From an uncultured Dokdonia sp. (GTDB lineage Bacteria; Bacteroidota; Bacteroidia; Flavobacteriales; Flavobacteriaceae), in contig NZ_CANLNH010000020.1 in assembly GCF_947492535.1 (NCBI RefSeq), positions 1-64,000 of the forward strand: a stretch of 64,000 nt of DNA, written 5' to 3'. Positions 81 through 63,667 of the stretch are shown piece after piece (position 1 is the stretch's first letter; each line of letters starts with the position of its first letter). The position numbers were made by a program, and so were the translations under genes. The notes under the pieces were generated by a model. The model saw nothing but the letters and a program-made list of their open reading frames with translations, was not told where the DNA came from and did not search any database.

Positions 81-83
81 CAA

Positions 84-2114: not shown

Positions 2115-2130
2115 CGCTTTCGCGAAAGCG
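2115..2130. repeat. Dispersed palindrome, intergenic upstream of tetR
   Basis: Perfect CGCTTTCGCGAAAGCG, about 30 bp upstream of the TetR operator, between the tetR and lipoprotein genes. Confidence 0.95.
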
Positions 2131-4530: not shown

Positions 4531-7290
4531 ATGGATAGATTTTCTTTTCTAAACGCAGCCCATACAGCCTATTTTTCAGAGCTTTATGATCAGTATTTAC
4601 AAAACCCAGACAGTATTGAACCTAGTTGGCGTGCCTTTTTTCAAGGTTTTGACTTTGGTATGGAAAGCAGTGAAGCTGTTTCTGAAGAAGTAGGAAGTAC
4701 TCAAATTACGATTCCTGAAAATGTAAAAAAAGAGTTTCGAGTAGTCAATTTAATAGACGGATATCGAACACGTGGACATTTGTTTACAAAAACAAACCCT
4801 GTAAGAGATCGTCGTAAATATGAGCCTACACTAGCTTTAGAGAATTTTAAATTATCAGATAGTGATCTAGATCAACAATTTGAAGCAGGCTCTATTTTAG
4901 GATTAGGAAAAACTAGCTTACGCGAAATACGCCGACACCTAGAAGCAATTTATTGTGATGCGATTGGGGTAGAGTACATGTATATACGTAAGCCAGAAGA
5001 AAGACAATGGATTCAAAATTGGTTAAACACCAATGATAATCATCCTTCTTTTAACCCAGATGAAAAAAAACATATTCTTCATAAATTAAACCAAGCCGTA
5101 TCTTTTGAAACGTTCTTACATTCTAAATATGTAGGACAAAAACGTTTTTCTGTAGAAGGATTGGATGCAATGATTCCAGGATTAGATACATTGATTGAAC
5201 GTGGATCTGAAAAAGGAATTCAGCAATTTGTATTAGGAATGGCACACCGTGGTCGTTTAAATGTACTGGCAAATATCTTTGGAAAATCACCAGAGGCTAT
5301 TTTTTCTGAGTTTGACGGAAAAGAATATGACGAAGATGAATTATTTGATGGAGATGTAAAATACCATATGGGGTGGACAAGCTTTCGCGAAAGCGATAAA
5401 GGACATAACATTCGTATGGATCTTGCTCCAAATCCTTCGCATCTAGAAACTGTAGGTGCTGTTATAGAAGGAATGTCAAGAGCAAAAATTGACACAAAAT
5501 TAAACGGAAACGAAAAAGCAATTCTTCCCATAGCCATTCATGGTGATGCCGCTGTTGCTGGTCAAGGAATTGTTTATGAGATTGTACAGATGTCACAATT
5601 GGACGGATATCGTACAGGAGGAACCATTCATGTGGTTGCAAATAACCAAGTAGGATTTACAACAAACTATTTAGATGCAAGATCATCTACCTACAGTACA
5701 GATATAGGAAAAGTAACGTTATCTCCAGTGCTTCACGTAAATGGAGATGATGTAGAAGCTGTATGTCATGCATTTGCATTTGCATTGGATTTTAGAATGG
5801 AATTTGGGCGTGATGTGTTTATAGATATTTTAGGATATCGTAAATATGGTCATAATGAAGGAGATGAACCTCGTTTTACACAACCTAAATTATACAAAGC
5901 AATTTCAAAGCATAAAAGCCCAAGAGATATTTATGCAGCTCGTTTATTAAGTGAAGGCGTGATTGCTGATGGACATGTAAAAGAGCTTGAAAAAACATAT
6001 AAAAGTGATCTCGAAGAAGATTTAGAAGCTTCTCGTAAAAAAGATAAAACAGTTATTACTGAGATTCTTGCAGATGATTGGAATGATTATGAATTAGGGA
6101 CGCTAGAAGATATTCTTACTCCAATAGATACTAGTTATGATCTAAAGAAATTAGATGTACTAGCAAATGGGATTACTAAATTGCCAGAAGACAAGAAGTT
6201 TATTCGTAAGATAGAGCGTATTGTAGCAGATCGTCATAAACAATATACAGATGTAAATAAATTAGACTGGGGAATGGGTGAGTTACTTGCCTATGCTAGT
6301 TTAATGGAAGAAGGATTTAATGTACGTATCTCAGGACAAGATGTAGAGCGTGGTACGTTCTCACATCGTCATGCCATTATAAAAACAGAAGATGGTAGTG
6401 AAGAAGTTAATCTTCACAACACACTAGGTGTAAAAGGGCATATGGATATCTACAATTCGCTGCTCTCTGAATATGGCGTCGTAGGATTTGATTATGGATA
6501 TGCTATGGCAGCTCCAAAAACATTAACGATTTGGGAAGCTCAATTTGGAGATTTTTCAAATGGAGCACAGATCATGTTAGATCAATATATCTCTGCCGCA
6601 GAGTCAAAGTGGAAGACACAAAACGGATTGGTAATGTTATTACCGCATGGATATGAAGGACAAGGGTCTGAGCATTCAAGTGCACGTATGGAACGGTATT
6701 TACAATTATGCTCTCATGATAATATGATCATGGCAGATATTACAACACCTGCTAACTTTTTCCATTTACTGCGTCGTCAGATGAAATGGAATTTTAGAAA
6801 ACCATTGGTGGTGTTTACCCCTAAGTCATTACTTAGAGATAAATTAGCTGTTAGTACAAAAGAAGAGTTAGCGACAGGTAGTTTTCAGGCGGTTATAGAT
6901 GATGCACAGGTAGATAAGAAGAAAGTAACCTCTCTTGTGTTTTGTACAGGAAAATTTTATTATGACCTTTTGAAAGAAAGAGATGGAGATGATAAAAAGG
7001 AAGGAAATGGTCGTACGGATGTTGCACTTGTTCGAATAGAACAGTTGTTCCCATTGCCACAAGATATGATTAAAGAAATTATAGCTGGATATCCTAATGT
7101 AACAGATTATGTATGGGCACAAGAAGAGCCTAGAAACATGGGAGCTTGGGGATATATGCTTATGAATTTTGATCAAGTAAAATTACGTGTTGCTTCACGT
7201 CGTGTGTATAGTTCGCCTGCAGCGGGAAGTAGTACACGATCAAAAGCAAGACATAGAAAAGTAATTGAAAGTGTTTTTCAAGCACAATAA
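4531..7290 (+). CDS. sucA: 2-oxoglutarate dehydrogenase E1 component
   Basis: 919 aa, close to the family's usual length of about 930. Thiamine-diphosphate-dependent E1 decarboxylates 2-oxoglutarate and passes the succinyl group to E2 in the TCA cycle. The N-terminus (FLNAAHTAYFSELYDQYLQN) is the E2/E3-binding segment. Family landmarks include MAHRGRLNVLANIFGKS near 237, NPSHLE near 300, HGDAAVAGQGIVYE near 337 and the Mg-ThDP segment NNQVGFTT near 370. The C-terminal half has the transketolase-like fold (HGYEGQGSEHSSAR). Residues 284-288 (SFRES) are encoded by a copy of the dispersed palindrome GCTTTCGCGAAAGC, just before the conserved NPSHLE. The E2 gene follows 147 bases downstream. Confidence 0.97.
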   Translation: MDRFSFLNAAHTAYFSELYDQYLQNPDSIEPSWRAFFQGFDFGMESSEAVSEEVGSTQITIPENVKKEFRVVNLIDGYRTRGHLFTKTNPVRDRRKYEPTLALENFKLSDSDLDQQFEAGSILGLGKTSLREIRRHLEAIYCDAIGVEYMYIRKPEERQWIQNWLNTNDNHPSFNPDEKKHILHKLNQAVSFETFLHSKYVGQKRFSVEGLDAMIPGLDTLIERGSEKGIQQFVLGMAHRGRLNVLANIFGKSPEAIFSEFDGKEYDEDELFDGDVKYHMGWTSFRESDKGHNIRMDLAPNPSHLETVGAVIEGMSRAKIDTKLNGNEKAILPIAIHGDAAVAGQGIVYEIVQMSQLDGYRTGGTIHVVANNQVGFTTNYLDARSSTYSTDIGKVTLSPVLHVNGDDVEAVCHAFAFALDFRMEFGRDVFIDILGYRKYGHNEGDEPRFTQPKLYKAISKHKSPRDIYAARLLSEGVIADGHVKELEKTYKSDLEEDLEASRKKDKTVITEILADDWNDYELGTLEDILTPIDTSYDLKKLDVLANGITKLPEDKKFIRKIERIVADRHKQYTDVNKLDWGMGELLAYASLMEEGFNVRISGQDVERGTFSHRHAIIKTEDGSEEVNLHNTLGVKGHMDIYNSLLSEYGVVGFDYGYAMAAPKTLTIWEAQFGDFSNGAQIMLDQYISAAESKWKTQNGLVMLLPHGYEGQGSEHSSARMERYLQLCSHDNMIMADITTPANFFHLLRRQMKWNFRKPLVVFTPKSLLRDKLAVSTKEELATGSFQAVIDDAQVDKKKVTSLVFCTGKFYYDLLKERDGDDKKEGNGRTDVALVRIEQLFPLPQDMIKEIIAGYPNVTDYVWAQEEPRNMGAWGYMLMNFDQVKLRVASRRVYSSPAAGSSTRSKARHRKVIESVFQAQ
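5381..5394. repeat. Dispersed palindrome inside sucA
   Basis: Perfect GCTTTCGCGAAAGC, read SFRES (residues 284-288) at the end of a variable loop before the conserved NPSHLE region. Confidence 0.95.
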
Positions 7291-7407: not shown

Positions 7408-7423
7408 CGCTTTCGCGAAAGCG
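7408..7423. repeat. Dispersed palindrome CGCTTTCGCGAAAGCG upstream of sucB
   Basis: Perfect 16-bp palindrome in the sucB 5' leader, ending 14 bases before the ATG. One of eleven copies with the identical 14-bp core in this window. Confidence 0.95.
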
Positions 7424-9485: not shown

Positions 9486-11030
9486 CCTTCCTGTTATCGT
9501 AAGATTAATTTTTTAATAATTGTATTTTCTTGTGAGGTGATCTGCATAAAATACATCCCTCTGGCAAGTTCACTTACATCCATGGTTTGTGTTTGATTAA
9601 AATTCGTTAGATCGATACGCTTGATGATTTTTCCATTCACATCAGTAATTACCGCATTTTCAAGAGTTGAGGTTCCAGTATATGCGAGTGTCACCTGACC
9701 CTGTGATGGATTTGGATACAGGGTAATTACGCTTTCGCGAAAGCTTTCTTCGCCTGCATTCAATACGTCACGATCTTGGAACACAATCGTGAATCTATCT
9801 GTATATACCCCTTTCTGAGCCGTAAACGTATAGGATTGCTCGTTTAGGTTAACAATCGTATTTGACAGATGATCAATGATAAAAACAGATGCGTTTCCTA
9901 TAGCGATTCCTTCAAGATTGCCAATGCTTATGGTGTATGGTGTTGCTTCTTCGATAGACGTTGAAAAACCAAGCGCAATTTCCATTTCAGGATCAAAAGC
10001 TTCTCTTGCCTGAATGCCTAAAAGTTCCCCAGAATCTAGGGTTGTAAATAAGGACAAGAAGGTCCCCACTCGCGGACTATCATACCCTTTGTCAATTGCG
10101 GGAGTGGCATTAGTTGTAAAGCCAATACCTGTTTGTGCAATCGCTTCGTCAAAAGCTGTTGTAGTCAAATTGAGCCATAGTTTATCAATATCGGTACTGG
10201 TTTCAGCGTTTCTAAAGCCATCATTATTTCCAGTAACACGGATGCTATTGGTAAATACAACAGGTGTTCCAGCAACCATTTCGGCTTGATCTGCTTTGAT
10301 GCCAAATCCTTGTCCAGAGGCCATAAACTGACTAGGAGATGTTCCTCCATTTACGGCAGCAATTCCCATCATGGCATTACGAATAGAAATATCATTCATA
10401 GAGAAGTTACTCGTTCCAAAACCGGGTAAGTCTGACGTAGGATTGGTGATATGATCCCAATAGTACACTTCGTTTATCGCATCATTAGCATTGATAAAAG
10501 CAGTGACATCTATCGCCGAAGCATATGGATTTCCTAATAGATTATAGTTGTTGGTAGTCGCTGGGCCATTGTAATTAATCGGCACGGTAATCGTTCCTGA
10601 GTTTAAGGTTCCCGGATTCATGACATCTTGTGTATAGGTAAGGGTATAGGCACCATCTCCTACATTGGGTTCTGGTTGTGGGAATATGAGTTGTCCGATA
10701 CCTGCACTTGGTAAAGCAGTACTTCCAGTGACAGGTAATAAATAATCATTGTTATCATCAAGGAAGTTTTCTGAAAACTCAAATTCTGGGAACTCCACAA
10801 AGTCAATTGTAAAAGGTACAAAGTTACTTGGTATGATACTAAAAACGGCTCTAGAATTTCCATAGACTCGATCTCTAGCTTCGGCAGTAACGGGACTACT
10901 CATGGCTACAAAATTACGATCGTCTATGATTGGGGTTGTTTTCGCGACAGCTATAGATCCATTATTGATAGTCACAGCATCTTCTTCTACCTGTACGATG
11001 CTTCCTGCGTTAGCTACATTTATGGCACCG
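9486..11030 (-). repeat. Shared surface-protein 3' module, copy 1
   Basis: About 1.5 kb encoding the C-terminal ~500 residues of the BspA-type protein. It is highly similar at DNA and protein level to 14783-16325 and 22313-23850. The left end extends into the 3' flank, where a short GATCCCCCAATC-type sequence is shared. The right boundary is approximate, placed where similarity fades (near the codons for AGSIVQV). Confidence 0.85.
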
Positions 11031-14782: not shown

Positions 14783-16325
14783 TATACAATTATCGTAAAA
14801 TTAATTTTTTAGTAACCGTATTTCCTTGTGATATGATCTGCATAAAATACATGCCTCTCGCAAGATCGCCTAGATCCATAGTTTGTGTTTGATTAAAATT
14901 CGTTAGATCAATACGTTTGATGATTTTTCCGTTGATGTCTGTAATCACGGCGTTTTCAAGTGTTGAAGTTCCGCTATATGCCAGTGTTACCTGACCCTGT
15001 GACGGGTTAGGGTAGAGGGTAATTACGCTTTCGCGAAAGCTATCTCCGTCTGCACTCAATACCTCGCGATCTTGGAAAACCATCGTGAATCTATCTGCAT
15101 ATATTCCTTTCTGAGCCGTAAACGTATAGGATTGCTCGTTTAGGTTAACAATCGTATTTAACAGATGATCAATGATAAAAACAGATGCGTTTCCTATAGC
15201 GATTCCTTCAAGATTGCCAATGCTTATAGTGTACGGAGTTATTTCTTCGATAGATGTTGAAAAACCAAGGGCAATTTCCATTTCAGTATCAAAAGCTTCT
15301 CTTGACTGAATGCCTAAAAGTTCCCCAGAAGCTAGGCTTGTAAATAGGGACAGGAAGGTCCCCACTCGCGGACTATCATATCCTTTGTCAATACTTGGTG
15401 TGGCATCAGAGGTAAAACCAATGCCTGTTTGTGCAATCGCTTCGTCAAAAGCCGTTGTGGTCAAATTGAGCCATAGCTTATCAATATCGGTACTGGTTTC
15501 AGCGTTTCTAAACCCATCATTATTTCCAGTCACACGGATGCTATTGGTAAATACGATAGGTGTTCCAGCAACCATTTCTGCTTGATCTGCTTTGATGCCA
15601 AACCCTTGTCCAGAGGCCATAAACTGTCCAGGAGGTGTTCCACCATTCACGGCGGCAATTCCCATCATGGCATTACGGATAGAAATATCATTCATGGAGA
15701 AGTTACTGGTTCCAAAACCAGGAAGATCAGATGATGGCATCGAGATATGATCCCAATAGTATACTTCATTTACCGCATCATTGGCATTAATAAAGGCAGT
15801 CACATCTATTGCCGAAGCATATGGGTTTCCTAATAGATTATAGTTATTGGTGGTTGCAGGACCATTATAGTTGATCGGTACCGATATGGTTCCTGAGTTT
15901 AAGGTTCCTGGATTCATAGGACTTTGTGTGTAGGTAAGGGTATAGGAACCATCTCCTACATTCGGTTCTGGTTGTGGAAATATGAGTTGTCCGATACCTG
16001 CTGCTGGTGTTGTAGTACTTCCAGTAACAGGCAATAGATAATCATTATTATCATCTAGGAAATTTTCTGCGAACTCAAACTCTGGGAACTCCACAAAGTC
16101 AATATCAAATGGTACAAAGTTACTTGGGATGATGCTAAAAACCGCTCTAGAATTTCCATAGACTCGATCTCTAGCTTCAGCAGTCACTGGACTACTCATG
16201 GCTACAAAATTACGATCATCTAAGGTTGGGGTTGTTTTCGCGACAGCTATACTTCCATTATTTATGGTGACAGCATTCTCATCTATTTGTACCACACTTC
16301 CTGTGTTAGCTACATCTAGTGTTCC
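14783..16325 (-). repeat. Shared surface-protein 3' module, copy 2
   Basis: About 1.5 kb, highly similar to 9486-11030 and 22313-23850. Similarity to copy 3 continues further upstream, to about 16500 (a domain beginning near TTYTTAGGWDNGTP), which copy 1 has in diverged form. Confidence 0.85.
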
Positions 16326-21838: not shown

Positions 21839-21859
21839 ATTCTGAATTCATTTCAGAAT
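21839..21859. repeat. REP-like inverted repeat, copy B
   Basis: Same ATTCTGAA / TTCAGAAT hairpin as at 14646-14666. Confidence 0.8.
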
Positions 21860-22054
21860 CTCATCATACTAGTTGTCAAATTTATGTGATCTTGAAATGC
21901 TGAAACAAGTGCAGTACAGGCAAGTTCAATATGACGTATTAATTAACCTCTAATTCTACATTACAAAATGACAACACAAAATAGAGTATTATTCTATTTT
22001 TAGAGTGTTACTCTATTTATGGTTTTGCGAAAAAGGATCACATTATGTTTGTTT

Positions 22055-22312: not shown

Positions 22313-23850
22313 ATTATCGTAAAATCAATTTTTTAGTAACCGTATTTCCTTGTGATGTGATCTGCATAAAATACATGCCTTTGGCAAGATCACTTACATC
22401 CATGGTTTGTGATTGATTAAAATTCGTTAGATCAATGCGTTTGATGATTTTTCCGTTGATGTCTGTAATCAGGACGTTTTCAAGAGTTGAGGTTCCAGTA
22501 TATGCGAGTGTAACCTGACCCTGCGATGGATTCGGGTAGAGGGTAATTACGCTTTCGCGAAAGCTTTCTTCGTCTGTATTCAATACGTCACGATCTTGGA
22601 ATACAATCGTAAATCTGTCTGTATGTAGGCCTTTCTGAGCTGTAAACGTATAGGATTGTTCGCTTAGGTTAACAATCGTATTTAACAGATGATCAATAAT
22701 AAAAACGGTTGCATTTTCTATAGCGATTCCTTCAAGGTTTCCAATGCTTATTGTGTATGGCGTTACTTCTTCAATAGAGGTGGAAAAACCAAGGGCAATT
22801 TCCATTTCAGGATCAAAAGCTTCTCTTGCTTGAATGCCTAAAAATTCCCCAGAAGCTAGTGTTGTAAATAACGATAAGAAGGTTCCCACTCGCGGACTAT
22901 CATACCCTTTGTCAATCGCGGGAGTGGCATTAGGTGTAAAGCCAATACCTGTTTGTGCAATGGCTTCGTCAAAAGCCGTAGAGGTCAGATTTAGCCATAA
23001 TTTATCGACTCCTGTTTGGGTTTCAGAATTTCTAAAGCCATCATTATTTCCAGTCACACGGATGCTATTGGTAAATACGACAGGTGTTCCAGCGACCATT
23101 TCTGCTTGATCTGCTTTGATGCCAAATCCTTGTCCAGAGGCCATAAACTGTCCAGGAGGTGTTCCACCATTCACGGCGGCAATTCCCATCATGGCATTAC
23201 GTATAGAAATATCATTCATAGAGAAGTTACTGGTTCCAAAACCAGGAAGATCTGATGTAGGATTGGTAATATGATCCCAATAATACACTTCATTTACAGC
23301 ATCATTGGCATTGATAAATGCTGTGACATCTATCGCCGAAGCATATGGATTTCCTAATAGATTATAGTTGTTTGTTGTTGCAGGGCCATTGTAATTAATC
23401 GGCACCGATATGGTTCCTGAGTTTAAGGTTCCAGGATTGGAAGGATTTTGTATGTAGGTAAGGGTATACGCGCCATCTCCTACATTCGGCTCTGGTTGTG
23501 GGAATATGAGTTGTCCGATACCTGCTGCGGGTGTTGCAGTGCTTCCAGTGACAGGTAATAGATAATCATTATTATCATCGAGGAAATTTTCTGCAAACTC
23601 AAACTCTGGAAACACCATAAAGTCAATTACAAAAGGCACAAAGTTACTTGGGATGATGCTAAAAACCGCTCTCGAATTTCCATAGACTCGATCTCTAGCT
23701 TCAGCAGTCACTGGACTACTCATGGTTACAAAATTACGATCATCTAGGGTTGGGGTTGTTTTCGCGACAGCGATAGATCCATTATTAATAGTCATAGCAT
23801 CTTCTTGAACTTGAACAATACTTCCCTCATTAGAAACATCAAGTGTTCCG
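22313..23850 (-). repeat. Shared surface-protein 3' module, copy 3
   Basis: About 1.5 kb matching 9486-11030 and 14783-16325. It begins at the stop codon region and includes the palindrome copy at 22551-22564. Confidence 0.85.
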
Positions 23851-28057: not shown

Positions 28058-28172
28058 GTGAGGAATGATGAATGTAGAACGACGAATTCAGAATTATGAA
28101 GGAGAATGAAAAAAGAGAAGAGAATAAAGAAAATAGATTTAAAAAAGCTATCTAAAAGCAACTTAATAGGTC

Positions 28173-28193
28173 ATTCTGAATTCATTTCAGAAT
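28173..28193. repeat. REP-like inverted repeat, copy C
   Basis: Same ATTCTGAA / TTCAGAAT hairpin as copies A and B. Confidence 0.8.
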
Positions 28194-28497
28194 CTCATCA
28201 CACTAATGAGAAACTGAAACAAGTTCAGTTTGACAAAAATTCCCTCCTAAGAATGCGTTGTGCTGAGTTTGTTGATATAAGAGCTAGAGAGGTGTGATTT
28301 TTTAGATGATCGTTGAATAGTTATTCCCTATAAAAAAAAGTAAAATAGAGTAATACTCTATTGTTAGCGTGTTACTCTATTTGTGGTTTTATGAAAAGGC
28401 GTTGTTTAGGGGTGTATGAAATTTTTCGACTGCCCCTTCGATAAGCTCAGGGTGACAAATTTAATTGAGAAGTTTTTAGTGTATGGTTGTGCGAGCT

Positions 28498-28636: not shown

Positions 28637-29284
28637 TTAAATGGAGAGTATCAATTCTTGATGTTCTTGGGTCCAGATAGAAAGAGAGTCTAAGCCTGTA
28701 GGTAACTCTAGTTTTGCAATGATATTAGCACGATGTTTTTGTACCGTACGTACAGAAATGCTAAGTAATTCTGCAATTTCTTTAGAGTTTTTATTTTGAG
28801 CAATGAGTCGTAAGATGGTACGTTCTGAGGGAGATAGAAGTTTAACTTTTTGTAGTTGAGGACTGATTTCTCCTTCGAAAACAGCATCAAATGTCGCACT
28901 GAAATAGGTGTTTCCTGCTGCTACTTCTTGAATGCATTTGTCTATCTCCATAAAAGGTTCGTCTTTTATGATGTATCCAGCAATGTTTAATTTTTTAGCT
29001 TTTAAAACAAAGCCTTTTTCTTTGTGGGAGGTTAAAATAATAAAACGTGTAGTAACGCTTAATGCTTGGCATTTTTTAATGACTTCAAACCCTGTTAATA
29101 AGGGCATCTCAATATCGAGTAATGCGACATGGGGTTGTTCTTCTTTTACATAATCTAATGCGAGCGCGCCATTTTCTACGGCTACTATATGGGAATATCC
29201 GTGGGTGTGTAGCGCGTTTTTAAGCCCTTCCAATAGTAATGGGTGATCATCTGCTATGAGTAGGTGTATGTCATTTTTTTGCAT
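28637..29284 (-). CDS. NarL/LuxR-family response regulator
   Basis: 215 aa. The receiver domain (1-120) has acidic residues Asp12/Asp13 and the phospho-acceptor Asp57 in ALLDIEMP. A LuxR-type HTH occupies about 145-205 (LSPSERTILRLIAQNKNSKE, then SVRTVQKHRANI). Its start overlaps the 3' end of the kinase gene by 14 bases, so they form a cognate pair. The next genes downstream are the three surface-protein genes, each with TACGTA boxes, making them candidate targets; this is inference. Confidence 0.92.
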   Translation of the reverse strand: MQKNDIHLLIADDHPLLLEGLKNALHTHGYSHIVAVENGALALDYVKEEQPHVALLDIEMPLLTGFEVIKKCQALSVTTRFIILTSHKEKGFVLKAKKLNIAGYIIKDEPFMEIDKCIQEVAAGNTYFSATFDAVFEGEISPQLQKVKLLSPSERTILRLIAQNKNSKEIAELLSISVRTVQKHRANIIAKLELPTGLDSLSIWTQEHQELILSI

Positions 29285-32200
29285 AACTATGGGGGATTTG
29301 TGCCGTGGTTACTGTTCCTGATGTTAGACTACTTTCTATAGTTACTATTCCTGCTAATATACGAATACGTTCTTCCATGGTTTTTAATCCTAAACTATGG
29401 TTCTTTTGTTTTTCTGATACCTCAAAACCTTTTCCGTTGTCTTTTATGGTGATTTGTATTGTATTTTTTTCTTTTTGGATTGTTACTGAGAATGCTTTCG
29501 CGAAAGCGTGTTTTATAATATTAGATACATTTTCTTGAACAAACCGGTAAATGTGTAGCGCTTCATTTTCGTCAAAAAGGTCGTCAATATCATCAATATC
29601 TGCTGAGACAAAAAGGTCGGTTTGCTCATCTACGTCATAGAGTAACTGCTCAATACTACCGCTTAGTCCTAGTTGTTTGATAATGGTAGGATACAATCCG
29701 CGAGAGATATGACGTATTTCTTCTAGGGCTTTGTGGGTAAGCTCACTTATAGTTGTTTTTCCTTGTTCTTGGAGTTTTTGTTTGATCAAAGTGAGTTGTT
29801 GACCAACACTATCATGTAAATCTTTAGCAATACGAGCGCGTTCTTCTTCTTGCGATTGCATTAAGTCTTGTGAAAAGCCTTCTTGTAGGCGTTTGCGAAG
29901 TTGTTGTTGTCTGAGCATCCAGAAAAGGATACTAGATATGATTACAGTTATTATTAGGAAAAACCACCAGGTCTTATAAAAGAAATCTTTTGAATGTATG
30001 GGAAGTAGGAGGGAGTCTCCAATTTTCTTACCTGAAAAGTCTAGTGCTTCAACTTCTAGCATGTATCGTCCCGCAGCAAGATTTGGAAAGCGTATGGATT
30101 GTGTATTTCCTATAGATACCCATTCTTTATCATCAAGGCGGTAGCGATAACGTTCGTTTCGGGTTACATCAGGTTGTGTCAAGGCAAAACCAATCTCTAA
30201 GGCACGATTTTCTGATGGGAGTGTGATGGTTTTTGCTTTACCGCTTCGCTCTCTCGATAGTCGTGAATCTCGCAAGCTCGATTTCGCGAAAGCGAACTGA
30301 TTATGTGATACGCTATATTTTTTATCTTGTGTATTATAGGTGCTGATACGTAAAGGGACGATTTGTGCCGTATTTACTTCTGGTTGAAGTTTTTCTGGGT
30401 CAAAAAAGTTTAACCCTTGTATGGTGCCTACCAAAAATCCGTCTTCTGTCTTTAAAGCACTATATCTATTGGCTTCGTTATTTGTAAATCCGTTTTTTAC
30501 AGAAAAGCGATGTGTTTGTTTTGATGCTGGATTAAAGGATACGATGCCGTTAAAGGTATTGATCCACCAGTTGTCTTGATCATCAAAAAGAATGGTCGCA
30601 ATACCAGCTTGTAGTTCATCTTGATATAGGGTCTTGAATTCTTTAGTTGCAAGATCAAACGTGGTGATGATGCCAGAACGTGACCCTTGAATATATCCAT
30701 ACTCAGGGTGATATTCTCCCATAAGAAGAAAGGGATCGGGGAGTTGTGCTGGATCATTATATAATGCATGCTCTTTTGAGCTAAGATCATAGGTGAGTAC
30801 TCCTTTACTTGTACTTGCTACGATGTGATTATCTGCTTTACGCCATTCGAGATCATAAATCTCTAAGGAATCTGTAGCTACCAGAGGTGTGTGGGTTTTC
30901 TTATGTGTGTTAAACTCCATAAGGTTGTACCCCTTGGTTCCATATACAATGGTAGAATCTGTAGGGCGTACCATACATATTACAGGGTAATGTCTATAAT
31001 ACTGTATTTCTCGTGTTAAGGTGTCTACCTCAATAATTCCTCCAGCAGTATCATTACTCCATATCGTACTGCCTTCTATAAAAAAATTACGAGAGGAGGA
31101 TGGTTTTAAAACGTCTCCTTGTTCAAGAGTGGTATAGGGTTTTATGGTATTGTTGCTACTATTAAAAAGCTGCCATCCATCCTTTTCTGTAGCAATTAGG
31201 TGTTTTTTTTCTGAGAGAGGCGTTATGGCTCTTATCTCTTTATCAGGGAGTAATGTCGTTACAATATCTGATGGGAATTTTATGTAGTGTAATGTATTGT
31301 TAGTTGTAAACCAGGCATCACGTTGTATGTCTTTAGATACGATTTCAAAACTACTAGCAGCGCCAAATTTTTTGTCTTCGTATACAGTGGTTAGCCCTTT
31401 CGTTTTATGTAATGTTTGTATTGATAATTGGTCTTTATAGGAAGAAATAATAGAATGTCCTCCTTTTGGATCATTGTACGTTTTTAAAATGGTGCTAAGA
31501 ATTTGATTTTCTGTAGCCATTACAGGGATTAGCTCCATTACGTCAGGGTCTATGCGATATACTTGATGGTAATTATATAAAAGTACATAGTGCTGTCCAT
31601 TCATTTGGAAATGTCCATCAATCCATTTTTTACGCAAAGCGAGTTCTCGTTCGTTTTCAAACCCTTTTGGGTCAATGGTTTTTACAACGTCTCCTTCCCA
31701 AGTAACAAAGGTGATAGGGAAGTTATCATCACTAATAACAACGACATCTTCAAAAGGAATAAACTGTGTTTTTTTATCTATCTTAATACGATTGACCTTT
31801 GTGGTAAATCGAAATATTTCTTCTAATTTTAAATCAGGATGTATGGTATTGACAATTACTTCAAGGTTATTTTGAGTAATGACATAGTTTTTGTCTTGAT
31901 ACTCAAAAACAGAAGATGTTCCTTTGTGTGTAGAGGTGTGTATTTCTATAAATTTGGTTGTAATAGGATCAAAAAGATACAGTGAACTATCTGTGACGAT
32001 GTAAAATTGCCCATCCTTCCTTTTGTAGATGTCAAAAATGTTACTATTGTCAGGTGTCGGGATGGTATGAAAAGAATTTCCGTTAAAGCGTTGTAAAATA
32101 GTTGGATTTGTGTTTGCTATAAGTTTAGAGCGTGCTGGATTAACACCACCGCCTAACCAAAGAAATCCATTTTGATCAAATGCAAGTGCGTTTACCTTAT

Positions 32201-32309
32201 CTATCTCTAGTCCGTCTTGTTGGGTGAATTGTTTTAGATATACTTCATTGTTTTGCGCATGAGATACATACCAAAAACAACTAAAAAAAAGTACGATTAA
32301 GATTCTCAT
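29271..32309 (-). CDS. Sensor histidine kinase with periplasmic beta-propeller (Reg_prop / Y_Y_Y type)
   Basis: 1012 aa. After a signal peptide (1-18, YVSHAQ) comes a long periplasmic region (about 20-670) of propeller-type repeats (FDQNGFLWLGGG, FDDQDNWWINTFNGI), then a Y_Y_Y-like Ig domain (about 690-760) and one membrane helix near 775-795. The HisKA_3 domain has the His box in RARIAKDLHDSVGQQL. A HATPase domain follows (NVSNIIKHAFAKAF, DNGKGFE, LGLKTMEERI). The AFAKA in the ATPase domain is encoded by the dispersed palindrome at 29494-29507. A 64-bp repeat element (30231-30294) encodes part of the periplasmic region just before the Y_Y_Y domain. Signal unknown. Start lies 47 bases after the retropepsin gene, so it may belong to that operon. 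Confidence 0.93.
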   Translation of the reverse strand: MRILIVLFFSCFWYVSHAQNNEVYLKQFTQQDGLEIDKVNALAFDQNGFLWLGGGVNPARSKLIANTNPTILQRFNGNSFHTIPTPDNSNIFDIYKRKDGQFYIVTDSSLYLFDPITTKFIEIHTSTHKGTSSVFEYQDKNYVITQNNLEVIVNTIHPDLKLEEIFRFTTKVNRIKIDKKTQFIPFEDVVVISDDNFPITFVTWEGDVVKTIDPKGFENERELALRKKWIDGHFQMNGQHYVLLYNYHQVYRIDPDVMELIPVMATENQILSTILKTYNDPKGGHSIISSYKDQLSIQTLHKTKGLTTVYEDKKFGAASSFEIVSKDIQRDAWFTTNNTLHYIKFPSDIVTTLLPDKEIRAITPLSEKKHLIATEKDGWQLFNSSNNTIKPYTTLEQGDVLKPSSSRNFFIEGSTIWSNDTAGGIIEVDTLTREIQYYRHYPVICMVRPTDSTIVYGTKGYNLMEFNTHKKTHTPLVATDSLEIYDLEWRKADNHIVASTSKGVLTYDLSSKEHALYNDPAQLPDPFLLMGEYHPEYGYIQGSRSGIITTFDLATKEFKTLYQDELQAGIATILFDDQDNWWINTFNGIVSFNPASKQTHRFSVKNGFTNNEANRYSALKTEDGFLVGTIQGLNFFDPEKLQPEVNTAQIVPLRISTYNTQDKKYSVSHNQFAFAKSSLRDSRLSRERSGKAKTITLPSENRALEIGFALTQPDVTRNERYRYRLDDKEWVSIGNTQSIRFPNLAAGRYMLEVEALDFSGKKIGDSLLLPIHSKDFFYKTWWFFLIITVIISSILFWMLRQQQLRKRLQEGFSQDLMQSQEEERARIAKDLHDSVGQQLTLIKQKLQEQGKTTISELTHKALEEIRHISRGLYPTIIKQLGLSGSIEQLLYDVDEQTDLFVSADIDDIDDLFDENEALHIYRFVQENVSNIIKHAFAKAFSVTIQKEKNTIQITIKDNGKGFEVSEKQKNHSLGLKTMEERIRILAGIVTIESSLTSGTVTTAQIPHSYAKK
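29494..29507. repeat. Dispersed palindrome inside the histidine-kinase gene
   Basis: Perfect GCTTTCGCGAAAGC, read as AFAKA in the ATPase domain. Confidence 0.95.
30231..30294 (-). repeat. 64-bp coding repeat element, copy 1 (in histidine kinase)
   Basis: 60 of 64 bases identical to 34939-35002 in the CHAT gene. On the minus strand it starts CGCTTTCGCGAAATCGA and ends GAGAGCGAAGCGGTAAAGC. Here it is read as AFAKSSLRDSRLSRERSGKA. The copy in the CHAT gene is read in another frame. Confidence 0.92.
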
Positions 32310-32356
32310 GGGGGAGATGTTACAATAAAATCCTCTTTTACAAGATAAGCTATATT

Positions 32357-32797
32357 TTACTTTTTAAGATATAAGCAAGTGTACTGATAATCAATGATTC
32401 CTTTTCCGAGGTTGAGGATGTCTGCTCCTAAAATGCCATGTACAGGAGGGGTGTTGTGATTTTCTAAAGCAGTATTTACATGAGAGAGATCAAAAAGGAC
32501 AAGGTTGATGTCTTCTCGTTTCCAAGTGCCTATTTTGATAGTATTATCTTTTGAGATTTCAGTACGCATATCAGTGGCACCAGCACCAGCAGCCAGCACC
32601 TCGCTTTCTTCACTAGTAAGTTTAAAATGGGGTGCAAAATTAAAATCCACACAAGAATTTGAGGCACCTGTATCGAGAATAAAAGAGCCTTTAACGCCAT
32701 TGATTTTGGCTGTAATTTCTAAATGTTGTGTGAGGGTAGGGAATAACCGAATGCGTGTATATCCTTTTTCTAGTAAAAATTCTCTAAGACTTGCCAT
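32357..32797 (-). CDS. Retropepsin-like aspartyl protease
   Basis: 146 aa, the size of a single retropepsin-type monomer that would act as a dimer. The catalytic motif FILDTGASNSCVDF is near residue 40. The flap region is followed by the second family signature GILGADIL near residue 124. No signal peptide or membrane segment is visible, so the protein is predicted to be cytoplasmic. Its start overlaps the end of the CHAT gene by 14 bases, indicating translational coupling with the CHAT protein. Substrate unknown; the tight linkage suggests it acts in the same pathway. Confidence 0.85.
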   Translation of the reverse strand: MASLREFLLEKGYTRIRLFPTLTQHLEITAKINGVKGSFILDTGASNSCVDFNFAPHFKLTSEESEVLAAGAGATDMRTEISKDNTIKIGTWKREDINLVLFDLSHVNTALENHNTPPVHGILGADILNLGKGIIDYQYTCLYLKK

Positions 32798-35399
32798 ATT
32801 TTCTAATCAAAACAATACTCAAAAGTACTCCAAAAATACCCAGTATCCACCACCATAGGATATGATTTTGTTGGCTCGGAATATCTGTAGGACCATAGTA
32901 TACAAAGGCACCCCAATAATAGGGTGATTTTTTAATATTAGATATGTTTTCATCTTGAAGATAGATACGTTGAACCTTATGTAAACTACTACTTCTTGAC
33001 GCTGTTTTTTTGAGTGATTTGTAATACCGACTCATTAGGTTTGCGGTAGATTGATCATTTACTTTCCATAGTGAGAAAAGGACACTTTTTGCACCCGCAT
33101 ATTGAAACCCTCTAGCAAGACTAAGCGGTCCTTCACCAGAAGCAATGCGTCCAATACCAGTCTCACAGGCACTTAATACAACCAGATCTGGGTTTAGGTT
33201 TTTGCTATACAATTCGTTAAGGTATAATGATCTGTCGATAAATGCGATACTAGCAGGTTCTGTAAAACTGCCACCTGAAGCATGCGTAGAAAAATGGAGT
33301 ATGGTATGTTGCGACGCTTTTGTAAATGCGTTATTGATAGATGCAGTATCTCCCATAAGTGTAGTTGTGTTAAATGTCTCGCTTATTGCTTTTGCTTCCT
33401 CTTTGGAATGCTCTAAAGCTAACGGCGTGTTTTCAAAAACAGGAAATATGCCTAATACGGTTGAAATATCTCGCAAGCCAAGATTTGGCTTCAGATATTC
33501 GGTGTATGAGAGTTGAGATGTAACCTGCGTTTCCTTTAATAGGAAAGGCATTTCACTAAAAGTACGCTGAGTACTTGCTGAGGTGAGTAGGGTATTAAAA
33601 GGGACAAAGGCAAGTATGCCATCTGGAATGATCACCATTTGCTGTGATGGCGTTAACTGCAGTGTCTTAAACAGTTTGAAAGATTGGGAGCTAAAACCAG
33701 ACGGATCATTGAGTATCGCGCTTGCATTTTCAAAATACCGATTATAAGCTACGCAGTTATTAAATAATTGATCTCGTGCTTTTCTGTCTTTAGCAATCTG
33801 GTGGAAACGTATTTCATCAGGACTTATCACAAATTGAAAGACGGTTTCAAATCCGAAAAAGTAGCTTACAATAGTTTGTTGAGATTGCGTTGTTTTTTCT
33901 TGGAGATCTTTAAGTGTGAAAGTAGCCTTGGATGATCTTAAATCTGGATATTTTTTAGAAATGGCCTCACGCAGTTTCTTTTGTAATAAGAATTCACTGG
34001 AATATGCGCTTTGTAACTCTTCTAAGCCTTTGATGTCTGAGGTTTGTCTTTTTTGAAATAACTGCACTTCCAGTTGTGCTAATTTTTGAGTACGCTGTTC
34101 ATATTCAATGACTAAACTGTCTTGCGCATATTGCGAGAGTTTAGCCTTATCATTCATCGCTTCACTCACTAAGTTAGCCTTGGATCGGTCGCTTATTTGT
34201 ACTGCTTTTTCCAGTAGAGTACTATCTTTTTGATCTTTGTATGCTTCATATAACAAGGTGAGTCGTTCTTCGCTTCTTTTTTTATCAGAAGCTTCTAGAA
34301 CAAGTCTAGACGGTTGTGAAAGTTGCGGTACATTCAATGCATCAGATACCTCAGCAGCAAGTGCATATGCTTGAAGTGCGTTTTCTTTTTGATCTTTTTG
34401 GGTATAGATTTCTGCATGAAGATCTAAAACATCCATCAAAGTATTATCTGCAACTAGACGTTTTACTTCGGGCAAGTTTCCAGAAACATAGTCTGGAAAC
34501 CATGTAGTGTATATCTGTTCTAATTGTGCGGTAGCTAACTCATACTCTTCTCGAATATGATACACTTGCGCAAGTGCAAGCTTTGTTTTTGAAAGATCTC
34601 TTAAGGTTTGATTCGGTAGTTTAGATTGTATGTCAATAGACGTTTCAAGAAATTGAACGGCTTTTTTTGTATCTCCTTTTTGAAGGGCTACTTGTGATAC
34701 TAGTTTATAAGCATTTACTTGATTCGGGTCCTTTTTTATGAGTTGTTTTGCTCTGTCTTCAGCTTTTTGATAATCTCCAACGCTTAGATAATTGGTCGCC
34801 AGATTCATCTGAATATCTTTATTTTCAGGTGCTAGTGCATACGCTTCCTCTAGAATACGAATCGCTTGTGCATACTTTCCTTGATTTTGAAGCGGTACTG
34901 AAAGATTAATAAGGCCAGAAAGGAGGTTTTGAGCATTGTTTTGCTTTACCGCTTCGCTCTCCCGATGGTCGTGAATCTCGCGAGTTCGATTTCGCGAAAG
35001 CGTAATATACCCCTTTATCAAGTTTTCTGCTTCAATATATGCATTGGTCTTTGTGTATAAATTTCCAAGCGGAATCATGGCAGAAGTAACGATATCATAG
35101 CCTTCTAAGTGATGCCTACTATAACGGTCTATCGCATTCTCATAACGAGCGATTGCTTTTTGAAGATTCCCTTGACGCTCTTGATAATATCCAATATTAC
35201 AATCTACGACTACTTTAGCGAGATGGCTTTTTAAGTCTGGTGTTTGTAGGCTGTCTGATGAGGTAATTAATAGCTGAAAATTATCTTGGGTTGGGGTTTC
35301 TAAAAATTGATCTAACACTTTGTAAAAAGCAGCTTCTTGCCCATGTACTCTGCCAAAGAAGATGAGAAAAAAAATACCTAAGAATACTTTTCTGGACAT
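32784..35399 (-). CDS. Periplasmic TPR-CHAT (caspase-like) protein
   Basis: 871 aa. Signal peptide 1-20 (ending GRVHGQ), then TPR repeats over about 50-420 (for example YAQAIRILEEAYALAPENKD and GDYQKAEDRAKQLIKKDPNQ). A helical linker leads to a C-terminal CHAT domain of about 570-840. The catalytic dyad of the caspase-like CHAT family is present: His in HFSTHASGG (near 703) and Cys in VVLSACETG (near 746), followed by GEGPLSLARGFQYAGA. A final membrane helix (ILWWWILGIFGVLLSIVLI) has a basic tail. The topology implies that the protease domain sits in the periplasm, anchored to the inner membrane. The 64-bp repeat element (34939-35002) encodes an insertion between TPRs near residue 133-154. 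Whether it cleaves or only binds partners is unknown. Confidence 0.92.
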   Translation of the reverse strand: MSRKVFLGIFFLIFFGRVHGQEAAFYKVLDQFLETPTQDNFQLLITSSDSLQTPDLKSHLAKVVVDCNIGYYQERQGNLQKAIARYENAIDRYSRHHLEGYDIVTSAMIPLGNLYTKTNAYIEAENLIKGYITLSRNRTREIHDHRESEAVKQNNAQNLLSGLINLSVPLQNQGKYAQAIRILEEAYALAPENKDIQMNLATNYLSVGDYQKAEDRAKQLIKKDPNQVNAYKLVSQVALQKGDTKKAVQFLETSIDIQSKLPNQTLRDLSKTKLALAQVYHIREEYELATAQLEQIYTTWFPDYVSGNLPEVKRLVADNTLMDVLDLHAEIYTQKDQKENALQAYALAAEVSDALNVPQLSQPSRLVLEASDKKRSEERLTLLYEAYKDQKDSTLLEKAVQISDRSKANLVSEAMNDKAKLSQYAQDSLVIEYEQRTQKLAQLEVQLFQKRQTSDIKGLEELQSAYSSEFLLQKKLREAISKKYPDLRSSKATFTLKDLQEKTTQSQQTIVSYFFGFETVFQFVISPDEIRFHQIAKDRKARDQLFNNCVAYNRYFENASAILNDPSGFSSQSFKLFKTLQLTPSQQMVIIPDGILAFVPFNTLLTSASTQRTFSEMPFLLKETQVTSQLSYTEYLKPNLGLRDISTVLGIFPVFENTPLALEHSKEEAKAISETFNTTTLMGDTASINNAFTKASQHTILHFSTHASGGSFTEPASIAFIDRSLYLNELYSKNLNPDLVVLSACETGIGRIASGEGPLSLARGFQYAGAKSVLFSLWKVNDQSTANLMSRYYKSLKKTASRSSSLHKVQRIYLQDENISNIKKSPYYWGAFVYYGPTDIPSQQNHILWWWILGIFGVLLSIVLIRKYGKS
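34939..35002 (-). repeat. 64-bp coding repeat element, copy 2 (in CHAT gene)
   Basis: 60/64 identical to 30231-30294. Here it is read as TLSRNRTREIHDHRESEAVK, a different frame from copy 1, and still without a stop codon. Confidence 0.92.
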
Positions 35400-35402
35400 A
35401 GG

Positions 35403-40284: not shown

Positions 40285-41019
40285 ATGGACGAGAAAACCA
40301 TACTACTTTTTGACGATTATCTACAAGGAGCGCTTTCTCCCGAAGCAAAAAACGCCTTAGAGTCAAGATTAAAAACAGAACCAGCACTTAAAGATGCATT
40401 TACCATTTTTAAAGAGGTAAACGGACACTTAAGTCATCAGCTATCTGAAGAACGCGTAGCATTTAAAGATACGTTGGAAACACTAGCAGATCAGCATTTA
40501 AAAACAACGATGACCCCTAAAAAAGAAGTGAAGGTTATTTCCTTTAAACCATTGCGATATCTCGTTGCAGCCTGTGTGATCGTATTATTCGGTATTACAT
40601 TTTGGATTCAGATGCAGGCGGTAAGCTATGACGATTATTCTTTTAAAGGAACTATAGACTTGGTAGAAAGGGGTGGTGATGTGTCCGCTTTCGCGAAAGC
40701 GGAAAAAGCATTTAACAATGGGGAGTATAATGAAGCTATTGCTCAATTTGATACGATTCTAGCTGACGATCCTGAGAATACACAAGTACTATTTTACAAA
40801 GGAATTGCTTCTGTCGAAACAGAAGACTATGCTAAAGCAACATCGATTTTTGAAAATTTAAGTAATGGGACTTCTATTTTTAAATACAAAGCACAATGGT
40901 ATCATGCGTTGAGTTATTTAAAACAAGGGGATACAGATCGATGTAAGCAAATCCTAGAACGTTTGCCTCAGGAGGCGGAAAACTATAAAGAAGCACAAGA
41001 ACTTCTTAAAAAACTATAA
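40285..41019 (+). CDS. Membrane-anchored TPR protein, candidate anti-sigma factor
   Basis: 244 aa. The N-terminal 90 residues (LLFDDYLQGALSPEAKNALE and onwards) resemble the cytoplasmic part of anti-sigma factors. A single membrane helix follows near 94-112 (YLVAACVIVLFGITFWIQM). The C-terminal half, predicted periplasmic, has TPR repeats (NNGEYNEAIAQFDTILADDP). Topology and its place 3 bases after an ECF sigma gene suggest it holds the sigma factor and senses an envelope partner through the TPRs, perhaps the TPR-CHAT protein; that link is inference. AFAKA near residue 137 is encoded by the palindrome at 40687-40700. Confidence 0.7.
   Translation: MDEKTILLFDDYLQGALSPEAKNALESRLKTEPALKDAFTIFKEVNGHLSHQLSEERVAFKDTLETLADQHLKTTMTPKKEVKVISFKPLRYLVAACVIVLFGITFWIQMQAVSYDDYSFKGTIDLVERGGDVSAFAKAEKAFNNGEYNEAIAQFDTILADDPENTQVLFYKGIASVETEDYAKATSIFENLSNGTSIFKYKAQWYHALSYLKQGDTDRCKQILERLPQEAENYKEAQELLKKL
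40686..40701. repeat. Dispersed palindrome inside the TPR/anti-sigma-like gene
   Basis: Perfect CGCTTTCGCGAAAGCG, extended by one more pair (18 bp), read as AFAKA just before the first TPR. Confidence 0.95.
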
Positions 41020-50505: not shown

Positions 50506-51296
50506 GTGATGTCGTTTTTTGATGTGTATGAAAGATGCATTTCAGTACCATCTCCCTCCTTTGACGAGACTTCAATCGTAGCGCCAATCAATTTTCCTCT
50601 AGACTCTATATTTGAAAGTCCTATTCCTTTTTTCGCTTTCGCGAAAGCCATATCAAACCCAATCCCGTTGTCTTTAGCCTTAATATCTAAACTGTCTTTG
50701 GTATATGTGATACAAACATCTAGATGACTTGCTTTAGAATGTTTAATCGTATTGGTGAAAAACTCTTGAAATATTCTAAAAATAATAGACCCTATTTTTT
50801 TATCTATTTCAATTGGAACTCCAGTTACTTTTAAACTCGTGGTTAGATATTCCATACGCGTAAAACGATCTAACTCTAGTTCTAATGCTTCAACAAGCGT
50901 CATGTTTTTGAGCGCTTCTGGATTAATAAGCTTAGACAAGGCTCGTATTTCTGTAAGTCCTTTTCCTATGGTTTGTGCTGCTTCGTCTAGTTGTGCTTGA
51001 TCACTGCCAGCATTTTGTGTTTGTATTTTAGCCAGAGTTAATAACTGGCCTATATTATCATGCAATTCCCAACTAATATTTCGTAAGGTTTCTTCTCTAA
51101 TTTCTATTTGGGACTCAGCAATCTCTCGTTCAAAACGTTTTTGAGAGTCTTGTTGTTCTATCAAAAGTTCATTTTTACGTCTGATAAAAACAGAAAATAA
51201 TACCCCTACTACAATTAATAACAATAATAAAATAGTTATTGATACTAATGCTAGTATCAGCGTGTTATTGTCTGGTTTGATTACATAATATGGCAA
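50502..51296 (-). CDS. Sensor histidine kinase (HisKA_3 type)
   Basis: 264 aa with one N-terminal membrane helix (about 13-36, LALVSITILLLLLIVVGVLF) and no periplasmic sensor domain. A HisKA_3 domain carries the His box RNISWELHDNIGQLLTLAK near 75. A HATPase domain follows (FQEFFTNTIKHSKAS, DNGIGFD, GIGLSNIESR). In the ATP-lid loop the residues AFAKA are encoded by a perfect palindrome copy (50635-50648), just where family members vary in length. It probably gets its signal from the membrane protein encoded 37 bases upstream. Confidence 0.92.
   Translation of the reverse strand: MPYYVIKPDNNTLILALVSITILLLLLIVVGVLFSVFIRRKNELLIEQQDSQKRFEREIAESQIEIREETLRNISWELHDNIGQLLTLAKIQTQNAGSDQAQLDEAAQTIGKGLTEIRALSKLINPEALKNMTLVEALELELDRFTRMEYLTTSLKVTGVPIEIDKKIGSIIFRIFQEFFTNTIKHSKASHLDVCITYTKDSLDIKAKDNGIGFDMAFAKAKKGIGLSNIESRGKLIGATIEVSSKEGDGTEMHLSYTSKNDIT
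50635..50648. repeat. Dispersed palindrome inside the second histidine kinase gene
   Basis: Perfect GCTTTCGCGAAAGC, read AFAKA in the ATP-lid loop. Confidence 0.95.
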
Positions 51297-54550: not shown

Positions 54551-54564
54551 GCTTTCGCGAAAGC
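54551..54564. repeat. Dispersed palindrome, intergenic
   Basis: Perfect GCTTTCGCGAAAGC between the exporter gene and asnS, upstream of the asnS promoter. Confidence 0.95.
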
Positions 54565-63653: not shown

Positions 63654-63667
63654 GCTTTCGCGAAAGC
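63654..63667. repeat. Dispersed palindrome in the rpsI-rpsB spacer
   Basis: Perfect GCTTTCGCGAAAGC in the 162-base spacer, 90 bases before the rpsB start. Confidence 0.95.

What the first reader, a model, noticed from the sequence alone, without database searches (positions are those of the whole stretch)
30231..35002. A 64-bp repeat element inserted in two coding genes and read in different frames
30231-30294 (histidine kinase) and 34939-35002 (CHAT protein) are 60/64 identical and in the same orientation, but translated in different frames: AFAKSSLRDSRLSRERSGKA versus TLSRNRTREIHDHRESEAVK. Neither introduces a stop. DNA identity without protein identity means the DNA itself moved or was copied into open reading frames, as in Rickettsia palindromic elements. 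One end carries CGCTTTCGCGAAA, the half of the short palindrome, and the other GCGAAGCGG, so the short palindrome could be a deletion derivative of this element, or the element an expanded form.
Basis: seen in the sequence. Interest (0 to 1): 0.85.

Follow-up and report, generated by a model that had tools for sequence, protein, structure and literature searches.

The report
Genome-wide palindrome that gains 45-bp inserts
The repeat found in two genes is a 45-base-pair module sitting inside a short palindrome that is scattered hundreds of times through Dokdonia genomes and is kept almost unchanged, much like the unexplained "highly iterated palindromes" and their tiny inserted repeats known from cyanobacteria.

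Summary
In detail: 30231-30294 and 34939-35002 are 60/64 identical, same orientation, different frames, no stop. But the 64-mer is not one unit: it is a palindrome (core GCTTTCGCGAAAGC) with a 45-bp module at a fixed place inside. The core occurs 827 times in the own genome (reversed control 0) and 369-905 times in 18 of 18 Dokdonia genomes; outside genera g1, g11, g213 no sampled genome exceeds 19. Between two species with flanks about 86% identical, 48 of 52 aligned cores are exact. Cores avoid each other within 1.5 kb. In 8 of 8 hand-picked enzymes the palindrome codons align to solved homologues without a gap; against one outgroup 2 of 3 close orthologues agree and one has a 6-residue gap. 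The long form is the short form plus the module: at 13 orthologous sites, 6 are long in one species and exact short in the other, 5 long in both, 1 another insert, 1 without palindrome. Closest precedent: HIP1 of cyanobacteria with SDR5 inserted in it; sequence, length and phylum differ, and none of three methyltransferase families tracks it. The Rickettsia-like reading is partly supported (module only). What maintains the palindrome and what moves the module are unknown.

The parts
30231..30294 (-). Long form in the histidine kinase gene (palindrome plus module), peptide AFAKSSLRDSRLSRERSGKA
   Evidence: D. pacifica orthologue has the short palindrome here
30240..30284 (-). 45-bp module of the kinase copy (the bases absent from the D. 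pacifica orthologue; ends ambiguous over the shared TTT/AAA)
34939..35002 (-). Long form in the CHAT/TPR gene, peptide TLSRNRTREIHDHRESEAVK
   Evidence: also long in D. pacifica; G015 (52% identical protein) has the palindrome with one extra A and is 15 codons shorter
34948..34992 (-). 45-bp module of the CHAT copy (by analogy with the kinase copy; same ambiguity at the ends)
29494..29507 (.). Short palindrome inside the same kinase gene (IIKHAFAKAFSVTI, within the HATPase_c match)
2116..2129 (.). Short palindrome, intergenic
5381..5394 (.). Short palindrome in ORF 4531-7290(+), SFRES frame
7409..7422 (.). Short palindrome, intergenic; classed as INDEL against D. pacifica (alignment not printed)
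9731..9744 (.). Short palindrome in ORF 9494-14428(-), near the C terminus
15027..15040 (.). Short palindrome in ORF 14790-21623(-), repeated C-terminal region
22551..22564 (.). Short palindrome in ORF 22314-27962(-), repeated C-terminal region
40687..40700 (.). Short palindrome in ORF 40285-41019(+), AFAKA frame
50635..50648 (.). Short palindrome in ORF 50502-51296(-), AFAKA frame
54551..54564 (.). Short palindrome, intergenic
63654..63667 (.). Short palindrome, intergenic

Best explanation
The 64-mer is a two-layer feature. Layer 1 is a highly iterated palindrome of Dokdonia (core GCTTTCGCGAAAGC), a DNA-level signal that arises mostly by base substitution at tolerant places in genes and between genes and is then kept nearly invariant, by selection or by biased conversion or uptake (shown: frequency, conservation, avoidance of close neighbours, no indel in most of the few cases tested; inferred: that a protein or an uptake/recombination process reads it). 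Layer 2 is a 45-bp small dispersed repeat (about TCGAACTTGTGAGATTCACGACCATAGGGAGAGCGAAGCGTTAAA) gained at one fixed point, CGCGAAA^GCG; it keeps 13 of the 14 core bases, or all 14 in some copies. It has a multiple of three bases, and in each of 28 own-genome loci at least one of six frames runs through without a stop, so some copies survive inside genes. Most likely mechanism of gain (inferred): a break or nick in a palindrome is repaired from another long copy using the palindrome arms as microhomology. Tandem arrays arise by slippage, and precise loss by deletion between the shared AAA trinucleotides, helped by the 10-bp terminal inverted repeat TATACGCTTT/AAAGCGTATA.
For: 827 cores in the own genome, reversed control 0; 369-905 in 18 of 18 genomes of the genus. 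Genus name: 42 of 43 stretches carrying the module are titled Dokdonia, one is a MAG titled Cytophagaceae; G011 contig C21 has the length of a D. pacifica DSM 25597 contig, 1,616,484 bp. Of 67 cores in 344 kb, 52 align with 100-bp flanks to the D. pacifica DNA held: 48 exact, 1 substituted, 3 with an indel; core identity 0.98-1.00 per ungapped position against about 0.86 in flanks. In 2.04 Mb, 350 exact against 37 one-mismatch cores outside long elements; order-5 Markov expectation 1.65 against 286 in contig C21. Gaps under 1500 bp: 22 against 66.5 expected, 0 of 2000 simulations as low. 184 of 286 cores lie in ORFs of 80 aa or more. 8 of 8 enzymes chosen by eye align without a gap over the palindrome codons in the two printed PDB alignments each. 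Long = short + 45: 6 of 13 orthologous sites differ by a module inside an exact palindrome; tandem 45-bp arrays. Precedent: SDR5 inserted inside HIP1 (PMC4390886 passages).
Against: Outgroup test: 12 rows could be judged, 7 without and 5 with a gap. At over 50% identity these are 3 distinct sites: two without a gap, one (76% identical to G038, seen in both species) with a 6-residue gap at the palindrome, so some palindromes may come with inserted bases; the other rows are distant (22-42%). 15 of 67 cores had no homologue aligned over 100 bp on both sides, so their origin is untested. The CHAT relative G015 has the palindrome with one extra A, not the exact core. At one long site the other species has no palindrome in the printed stretch (L008) and at one a different decayed insert (L015). 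No binding protein, recombinase or uptake preference was identified. The repair mechanism rests on anatomy alone; Pfam Y1_Tnp was the only transposase family searched. The kinase polarity is not settled.
Confidence: 0.7

Rival explanations
1. The palindrome is a DNA uptake signal: competent Dokdonia cells take up DNA carrying it, so it accumulates by drive without indels; the module is a hitch-hiker copied during recombination of incoming DNA.
For: 64% in ORFs (184 of 286; PMC1939737 gives 65% for H. influenzae and 35% for N. gonorrhoeae, passages); no strong orientation bias along C21 (orientation 0 in 87 of 188 sites of the first 1.1 Mb and 55 of 98 of the rest); avoidance of close neighbours; asymmetric A/T-rich flanks after orientation; lineage-restricted; few sites in species-specific stretches of one D. 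pacifica region (1 of 37 cores in 42.8 of 200 kb). Two Riemerella species of the family are reported naturally competent (PMC7965970, abstract start and passages).
Against: Known uptake sequences are not palindromes (PMC1939737). In the own genome the depletion is weak (7 of 67 cores in 57.5 of 344 kb; in one of three regions there is an excess, 3 of 18 in 9.4 of 80 kb). F. johnsoniae was not competent in the same study. No competence gene or uptake was tested here.
Confidence: 0.3
2. HIP1-like by-product: a DNA methyltransferase plus biased mismatch repair creates and maintains the palindrome without any other function.
For: Same formal pattern as HIP1: palindrome, spread by substitution (title of Robinson 1997 in a reference list), deviations concentrated near the ends (33 of 37 one-mismatch sites at the two outermost positions on either side; HIP1 abstract).
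Against: No one of three methyltransferase families tracks it. Among 14 palindrome-rich genomes, matches over the cut-off: PF01555 in 2, PF00145 in 6, PF02086 in 8; G006, G009 and G289 have none of the three. Other methyltransferase families were not searched.
Confidence: 0.15
3. Selfish mobile element: the 64-69-mer is a MITE or REP-type element moved by a transposase, and short palindromes are its deletion remnants.
For: Terminal inverted repeats, many copies, tandem arrays, gain or loss between two species; one palindrome coincides with a 6-residue gap.
Against: The short form outnumbers the long (286 exact cores against 38 long places in the same 1.6 Mb), is conserved at orthologous sites, and sits without gaps in 8 of 8 enzymes chosen by eye. 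No Y1_Tnp match in the own genome.
Confidence: 0.14
4. The two window copies arose from each other by local gene conversion, with no genome-wide element.
For: They lie 4.7 kb apart and are 60/64 identical, closer than any other listed copy.
Against: 40 separate places in the own genome; the CHAT copy is long in D. pacifica while the kinase copy is short there.
Confidence: 0.01

Closest known systems
HIP1 (GCGATCGC) of cyanobacteria
   Same: Highly iterated palindrome; said to spread by substitution; function unresolved; lineage-restricted (PMC4390886 abstract and passages)
   Different: 14-bp core (24-bp intergenic consensus) instead of 8 bp; Bacteroidota; no common methyltransferase among three families; avoidance of near neighbours was not compared for HIP1
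SDR5 inserted in HIP1 (Elhai 2008, seen only as cited in PMC4390886)
   Same: Very small dispersed repeat placed precisely inside an iterated palindrome
   Different: Different sequence and host; the 45-bp module leaves 13-14 of 14 core bases intact; tandem arrays; SDR5 itself not read about (paper not held)
DNA uptake sequences (Pasteurellaceae, Neisseriaceae)
   Same: Many copies, many in ORFs, no orientation bias, accumulation by point mutation; A/T-rich flanks in the H. influenzae consensus (PMC1939737 passages)
   Different: Palindromic here; uptake not tested
Rickettsia palindromic elements (RPE)
   Same: Repeat read in frame inside protein genes and also intergenic (PMC2229807 passages)
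   Different: RPEs are 105-146 bp with long stem-loops; here 45 bp enter an existing palindrome and the folds are weak
REP elements with RAYT transposases (recalled; listing of PMC3733652 only)
   Same: Short palindromes in high copy
   Different: About two thirds of the copies are inside ORFs; no Y1_Tnp gene in the own genome

Membership tests
HIP1 | Sequence GCGATCGC | tested here: not met
   Core is GCTTTCGCGAAAGC
HIP1 | Gross over-representation across the genome | tested here: met
   827 against control 0; 286 against 1.65 expected in C21
HIP1 | Spread by substitution, not insertion | tested here: inconclusive
   8 of 8 hand-picked enzymes gap-free; close outgroup orthologues 2 without and 1 with a 6-residue gap
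HIP1 | A methyltransferase for the motif in all bearing genomes | tested here: not met
   No one of PF01555, PF00145, PF02086 in all 14; other families not searched
DNA uptake sequence | Preferential uptake of DNA carrying the motif | not testable with these tools
   Needs transformation assays
[quoted passage not shown]
   184 of 286 in ORFs; orientation 87 of 188 and 55 of 98; one 1.6-Mb contig only
Rickettsia palindromic element | 105-146 bp element inserted into ORFs | tested here: not met
   45 bp added inside a pre-existing palindrome
Rickettsia palindromic element | Long stable stem-loop | tested here: inconclusive
   Two window copies, both strands: z 0.54, -0.27, -1.66, -1.44; 143, 70, 13 and 14 of 200 shuffles fold at least as well
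REP/RAYT | RAYT (Y1) transposase in the genome | tested here: not met
   PF01797 in 0 of 1 genome; controls ring in 5 of 14
MITE | Terminal inverted repeats | tested here: met
   TATACGCTTT/AAAGCGTATA in the consensus, but these are the palindrome arms
MITE | Autonomous partner with the same ends | not tested
   Only half-site pairs up to 160 bp apart were sought

The most novel reading that the evidence does not exclude
Dokdonia and two other genera carry a palindromic genome-wide uptake or recombination signal, not found in print for Bacteroidota in the searches, whose sites repel each other within about 1.5 kb and which serves as the docking site for a family of very small mobile modules that are gained and precisely lost.
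Probability: 0.33. Interest if true: 0.8.

Novelty: new variant of a known kind. Interest (0 to 1): 0.62.

Why it matters
A 14-bp palindrome that stays about 99.7% identical per ungapped base between species while its flanks differ by 14%, mostly inside genes and spaced as if one per kilobase or more suffices, is probably read by something. Finding the pattern of HIP1 plus a small inserted repeat in another phylum, without a common methyltransferase among three families, helps separate explanations that cyanobacteria alone could not. At least one bearer is a culture-collection strain (D. pacifica DSM 25597), so uptake, binding and methylation tests are direct. It also explains recurring peptides such as AFAKA, LSRK and RFRES in these proteins as DNA-level constraints.

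Tried and rejected
A transposed 64-bp unit was rejected because orthologues differ by 45 bp. RNA structure was set aside: weak folds, no Rfam match at E<=1 in 29000-36000, no consistent excess of dyad pairing in the flanks over independent base composition (a few distances lie slightly above, such as coding +-2 at 0.39 against 0.31, others below). RAYT mobilisation: no Y1_Tnp. Chi/KOPS-like strand bias: none strong in C21 (counts compared by eye, no test). A methyltransferase cause was weakened. Half-site pairing listed 7 non-intact pairs: two 36-bp-gap and one 47-bp-gap copies of another repeat type, and four that look spurious.

Literature: the 16-mer and the 14-mer appear in 0 papers of the held library. 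Dokdonia plus 'palindrom' lists 5 papers, seen as listing only. Other listings. Absence in print is claimed only for these searches. Seen as passages: PMC7965970, PMC1939737, PMC2229807, PMC4390886. Elhai 2008 is not held.

Rows dropped or limits: one search left out L028 and L029 (tandem or contig-end pieces) of 30 loci. One search used sites aligned over 15 bp on each side. One search set aside 15 of 67 sites. One search kept pieces of 40 nt or more and mapped them only to the G000 DNA held. One search kept only rows spanning the palindrome. The 8 enzymes were picked by eye from the list, not at random; in two of them (glutamate-tRNA ligase, aminotransferase) the two printed alignments are to near-identical proteins. 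In one search only 11 candidates were scored in each palindrome-rich genome.

For the outgroup tally I lowered the main confidence from 0.72 to 0.70 and raised the mobile-element rival from 0.12 to 0.14.

Full report
Observation. The genes are a two-component histidine kinase (Reg_prop, Y_Y_Y, HisKA_3, HATPase_c) and a TPR-CHAT protein. The frames differ and neither copy has a stop. The own genome holds 43 matches at E<=1.9e-6 at 40 places (40 of 268 first-look candidates were scored, so this is a lower bound). 344 kb of it scanned in full hold 11 places, the two in the window included.

Host. Of 43 stretches carrying the module in a collection of 84,980 species genomes, 42 are titled Dokdonia and one is a MAG titled Cytophagaceae; records near the window's own genome may be left out there. 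G011 is taken to be D. pacifica DSM 25597 from the contig length 1,616,484. The window's own genome is of the same genus by the tool's kinship.

Anatomy. The genomic copies share about TATACGCTTTCGCGAAA-TCGAACTTGTGAGATTCACGACCATAGGGAGAGCGAAGCGTTAAA-GCGTATA, read by eye from 30 copies. Removing 45 bp leaves TATACGCTTTCGCGAAAGCGTATA. This short palindrome is the dominant form. The core GCTTTCGCGAAAGC occurs 827 times in the own genome with a reversed control of 0, and 369-905 times in 18 of 18 genomes of the genus, the own one included. The three sampled genomes of genus g11 have 578, 664 and 609 and the one of g213 has 408. All other genomes (79 searched; 397 searched) have 0-19. In 79 relatives the long form appears near full length in 13 of 18 genomes of g1 and in one place of G027 (g11); for G006, G008, G009, G013 and G016 only palindrome-length matches were listed, with 11 candidates scored in each.

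The short palindrome is a maintained DNA signal. In 344 kb compared with the D. pacifica DNA held, 52 of 67 cores have aligned 100-bp flanks; 48 are exact, 1 is substituted, 3 have an indel. Core identity is 0.98-1.00 per ungapped position, flanks about 0.86; chance retention of 14 bases at 86% would be about 12% (own arithmetic). Sites were chosen as exact in this genome. In 2.04 Mb, outside long elements, there are 350 exact against 37 one-mismatch cores. Cores avoid each other: 22 gaps under 1.5 kb against 66.5 expected, 0 of 2000 simulations as low; in 200 kb of G238 the smallest of 33 gaps is 1319 bp. 184 of 286 cores in C21 lie in ORFs of 80 aa or more. Across 218 genic cores the frames are AFAKA 129, RFRES 47, LSRK 42. 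Orientation shows no strong bias along the contig (87 of 188 sites of the first 1.1 Mb, 55 of 98 of the rest, not tested further), although an asymmetric A/T-rich flank appears after orientation, above a random-flank control. Flank dyads show no consistent pairing beyond base composition.

Origin of the short palindrome. Eight palindrome-bearing D. pacifica enzymes, chosen by eye, were compared with solved structures: phosphoglycerate kinase, glutamate-tRNA ligase, enoyl-CoA hydratase, SufS-type cysteine desulfurase, peptidyl-tRNA hydrolase, a relative of D-3-phosphoglycerate dehydrogenase, biotin carboxylase and branched-chain aminotransferase. In 8 of 8, in both printed alignments, the palindrome codons align without a gap (in two enzymes the two alignments are to near-identical proteins). 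Against outgroup stretches of G238 and G038, 12 rows could be judged: 7 without and 5 with a gap. At over 50% identity they are three distinct sites: two without a gap (a 58-59% and a 59% identical pair) and one with a 6-residue gap (76% identical, seen from both species); the other rows are 22-42% identical. So substitution without an indel is the commoner finding in a small, partly hand-picked sample, and insertion occurs or cannot be excluded at some sites.

The long form is a 45-bp gain inside it. Kinase: long in G000 and G007, short in D. pacifica and G012, with 15 codons of difference; G005 has no palindrome there. CHAT: long in G000 and D. pacifica; G015 has the palindrome with one extra A; G012 (L076) and G038 (L079) have no palindrome and the same 15-residue gap, so at this site the palindrome itself cost no length. 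At 13 distinct orthologous sites between G000 and D. pacifica where at least one is long: 6 long/exact short (L001, L018, L025; D. pacifica C21 593136, 1355833, 733357), 5 long in both (L002, L007, and the sites of C21 669166, 373241 and 1353350, the last degenerate), 1 a different decayed insert (L015), 1 with no palindrome in the printed stretch (L008). Two further palindromes carry a different insert in one species (A 101968, B 120769). The module occurs in tandem in G005, in D. pacifica and at contig end C19 of the own genome, with another piece at the start of C22. Some units contain a second palindrome (CCTGCC...GGCAGG) after GAGA. Of 28 own-genome long loci examined, 5 lie clearly inside ORFs (L001, L002, L004, L005, L023); four of these share the frame LSRNRTREI(H/Q)DHRES. 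L003 lies at the edge of an ORF and was not counted. That is fewer than the short form's two thirds, as expected if a 45-bp gain is harder to tolerate in genes (inference).

Polarity at the kinase. G000 and G007 modules share GACTA and a following C against the consensus GACCATAGGG (by eye), which suggests one older gain and a precise loss in D. pacifica; two gains are not excluded.

Mechanism (inferred). Constant junction, absence of longer shared flanks, tandem arrays and possible precise loss fit repair of a broken palindrome from another long copy through arm microhomology, with slippage for arrays. A site-specific recombinase is an alternative; Pfam Y1_Tnp, the only transposase family searched, is absent from the own genome.

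Known kinds. HIP1 of cyanobacteria is the nearest: an iterated palindrome said to spread by substitutions (title cited in PMC4390886), with the repeat module SDR5 inserted precisely between its third and fourth nucleotides (passage). The cause proposed there, a methyltransferase with mismatch repair, is not supported here for three families: none of them is in all 14 palindrome-rich genomes searched, and G006, G009 and G289 have none over the cut-off. Uptake sequences share the genomic habits but are not palindromes (PMC1939737 passages). RPEs share the in-frame reading inside genes (PMC2229807 passages) but are 105-146 bp elements.

Verdict. The thing is a HIP-like palindrome with an SDR-like module in another phylum: a new variant of a known kind, with function and mover unknown.

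Noticed in passing
L289 (G135:C1:2560000-2565000), cores at 1728 and 2661: Genera that otherwise lack the palindrome have small clusters of it; in G126, G135, G149 and G262 two cores lie 933 bp apart. In G135 they fall in a TolC-like outer-membrane efflux gene beside an RND pump and a multicopper oxidase (names by eye), so a metal-efflux island may have moved between genera carrying palindromes with it.
   Followed up: partly
L021, L029; D. pacifica C21 about 291727, 373323, 733446, 869414, 920041: A second palindrome (CCTGCC...GGCAGG, about 20 bp) sits after GAGA inside some 45-bp modules (read in L021, L029, 373323, 733446; the other three inferred from match lengths of 87-89), giving nested repeats.
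   Followed up: partly
window 14590-14678, 21783-21871, 28117-28205: Another repeat (GTCATTCTGAATTCATTTCAGAATCTCATCA type) lies about 160 bp upstream of the starts of three large genes whose last 300 bp are also repeated.
   Followed up: no
window 1-90: Near-perfect 8-bp tandem repeat CAACTCCT at the start of the window.
   Followed up: no
L166-L188 (viral contigs): The 17-mer ACGCTTTCGCGAAAGCG occurs in 23 stretches of viral contigs, one or two listed matches per stretch; possibly phages or prophages of Dokdonia.
   Followed up: no
G000 C4 region A 101968 and D. pacifica C21 667765, 903955, 828625: Other inserts of a TTCATACTGAGTTAGTCGAAGTAC type also sit inside palindromes, so the palindrome may receive more than one kind of small repeat.
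   Followed up: partly
D. pacifica C21 400000-500000: Only 6 cores in 100 kb against a contig mean of about 18; perhaps an acquired region.
   Followed up: no
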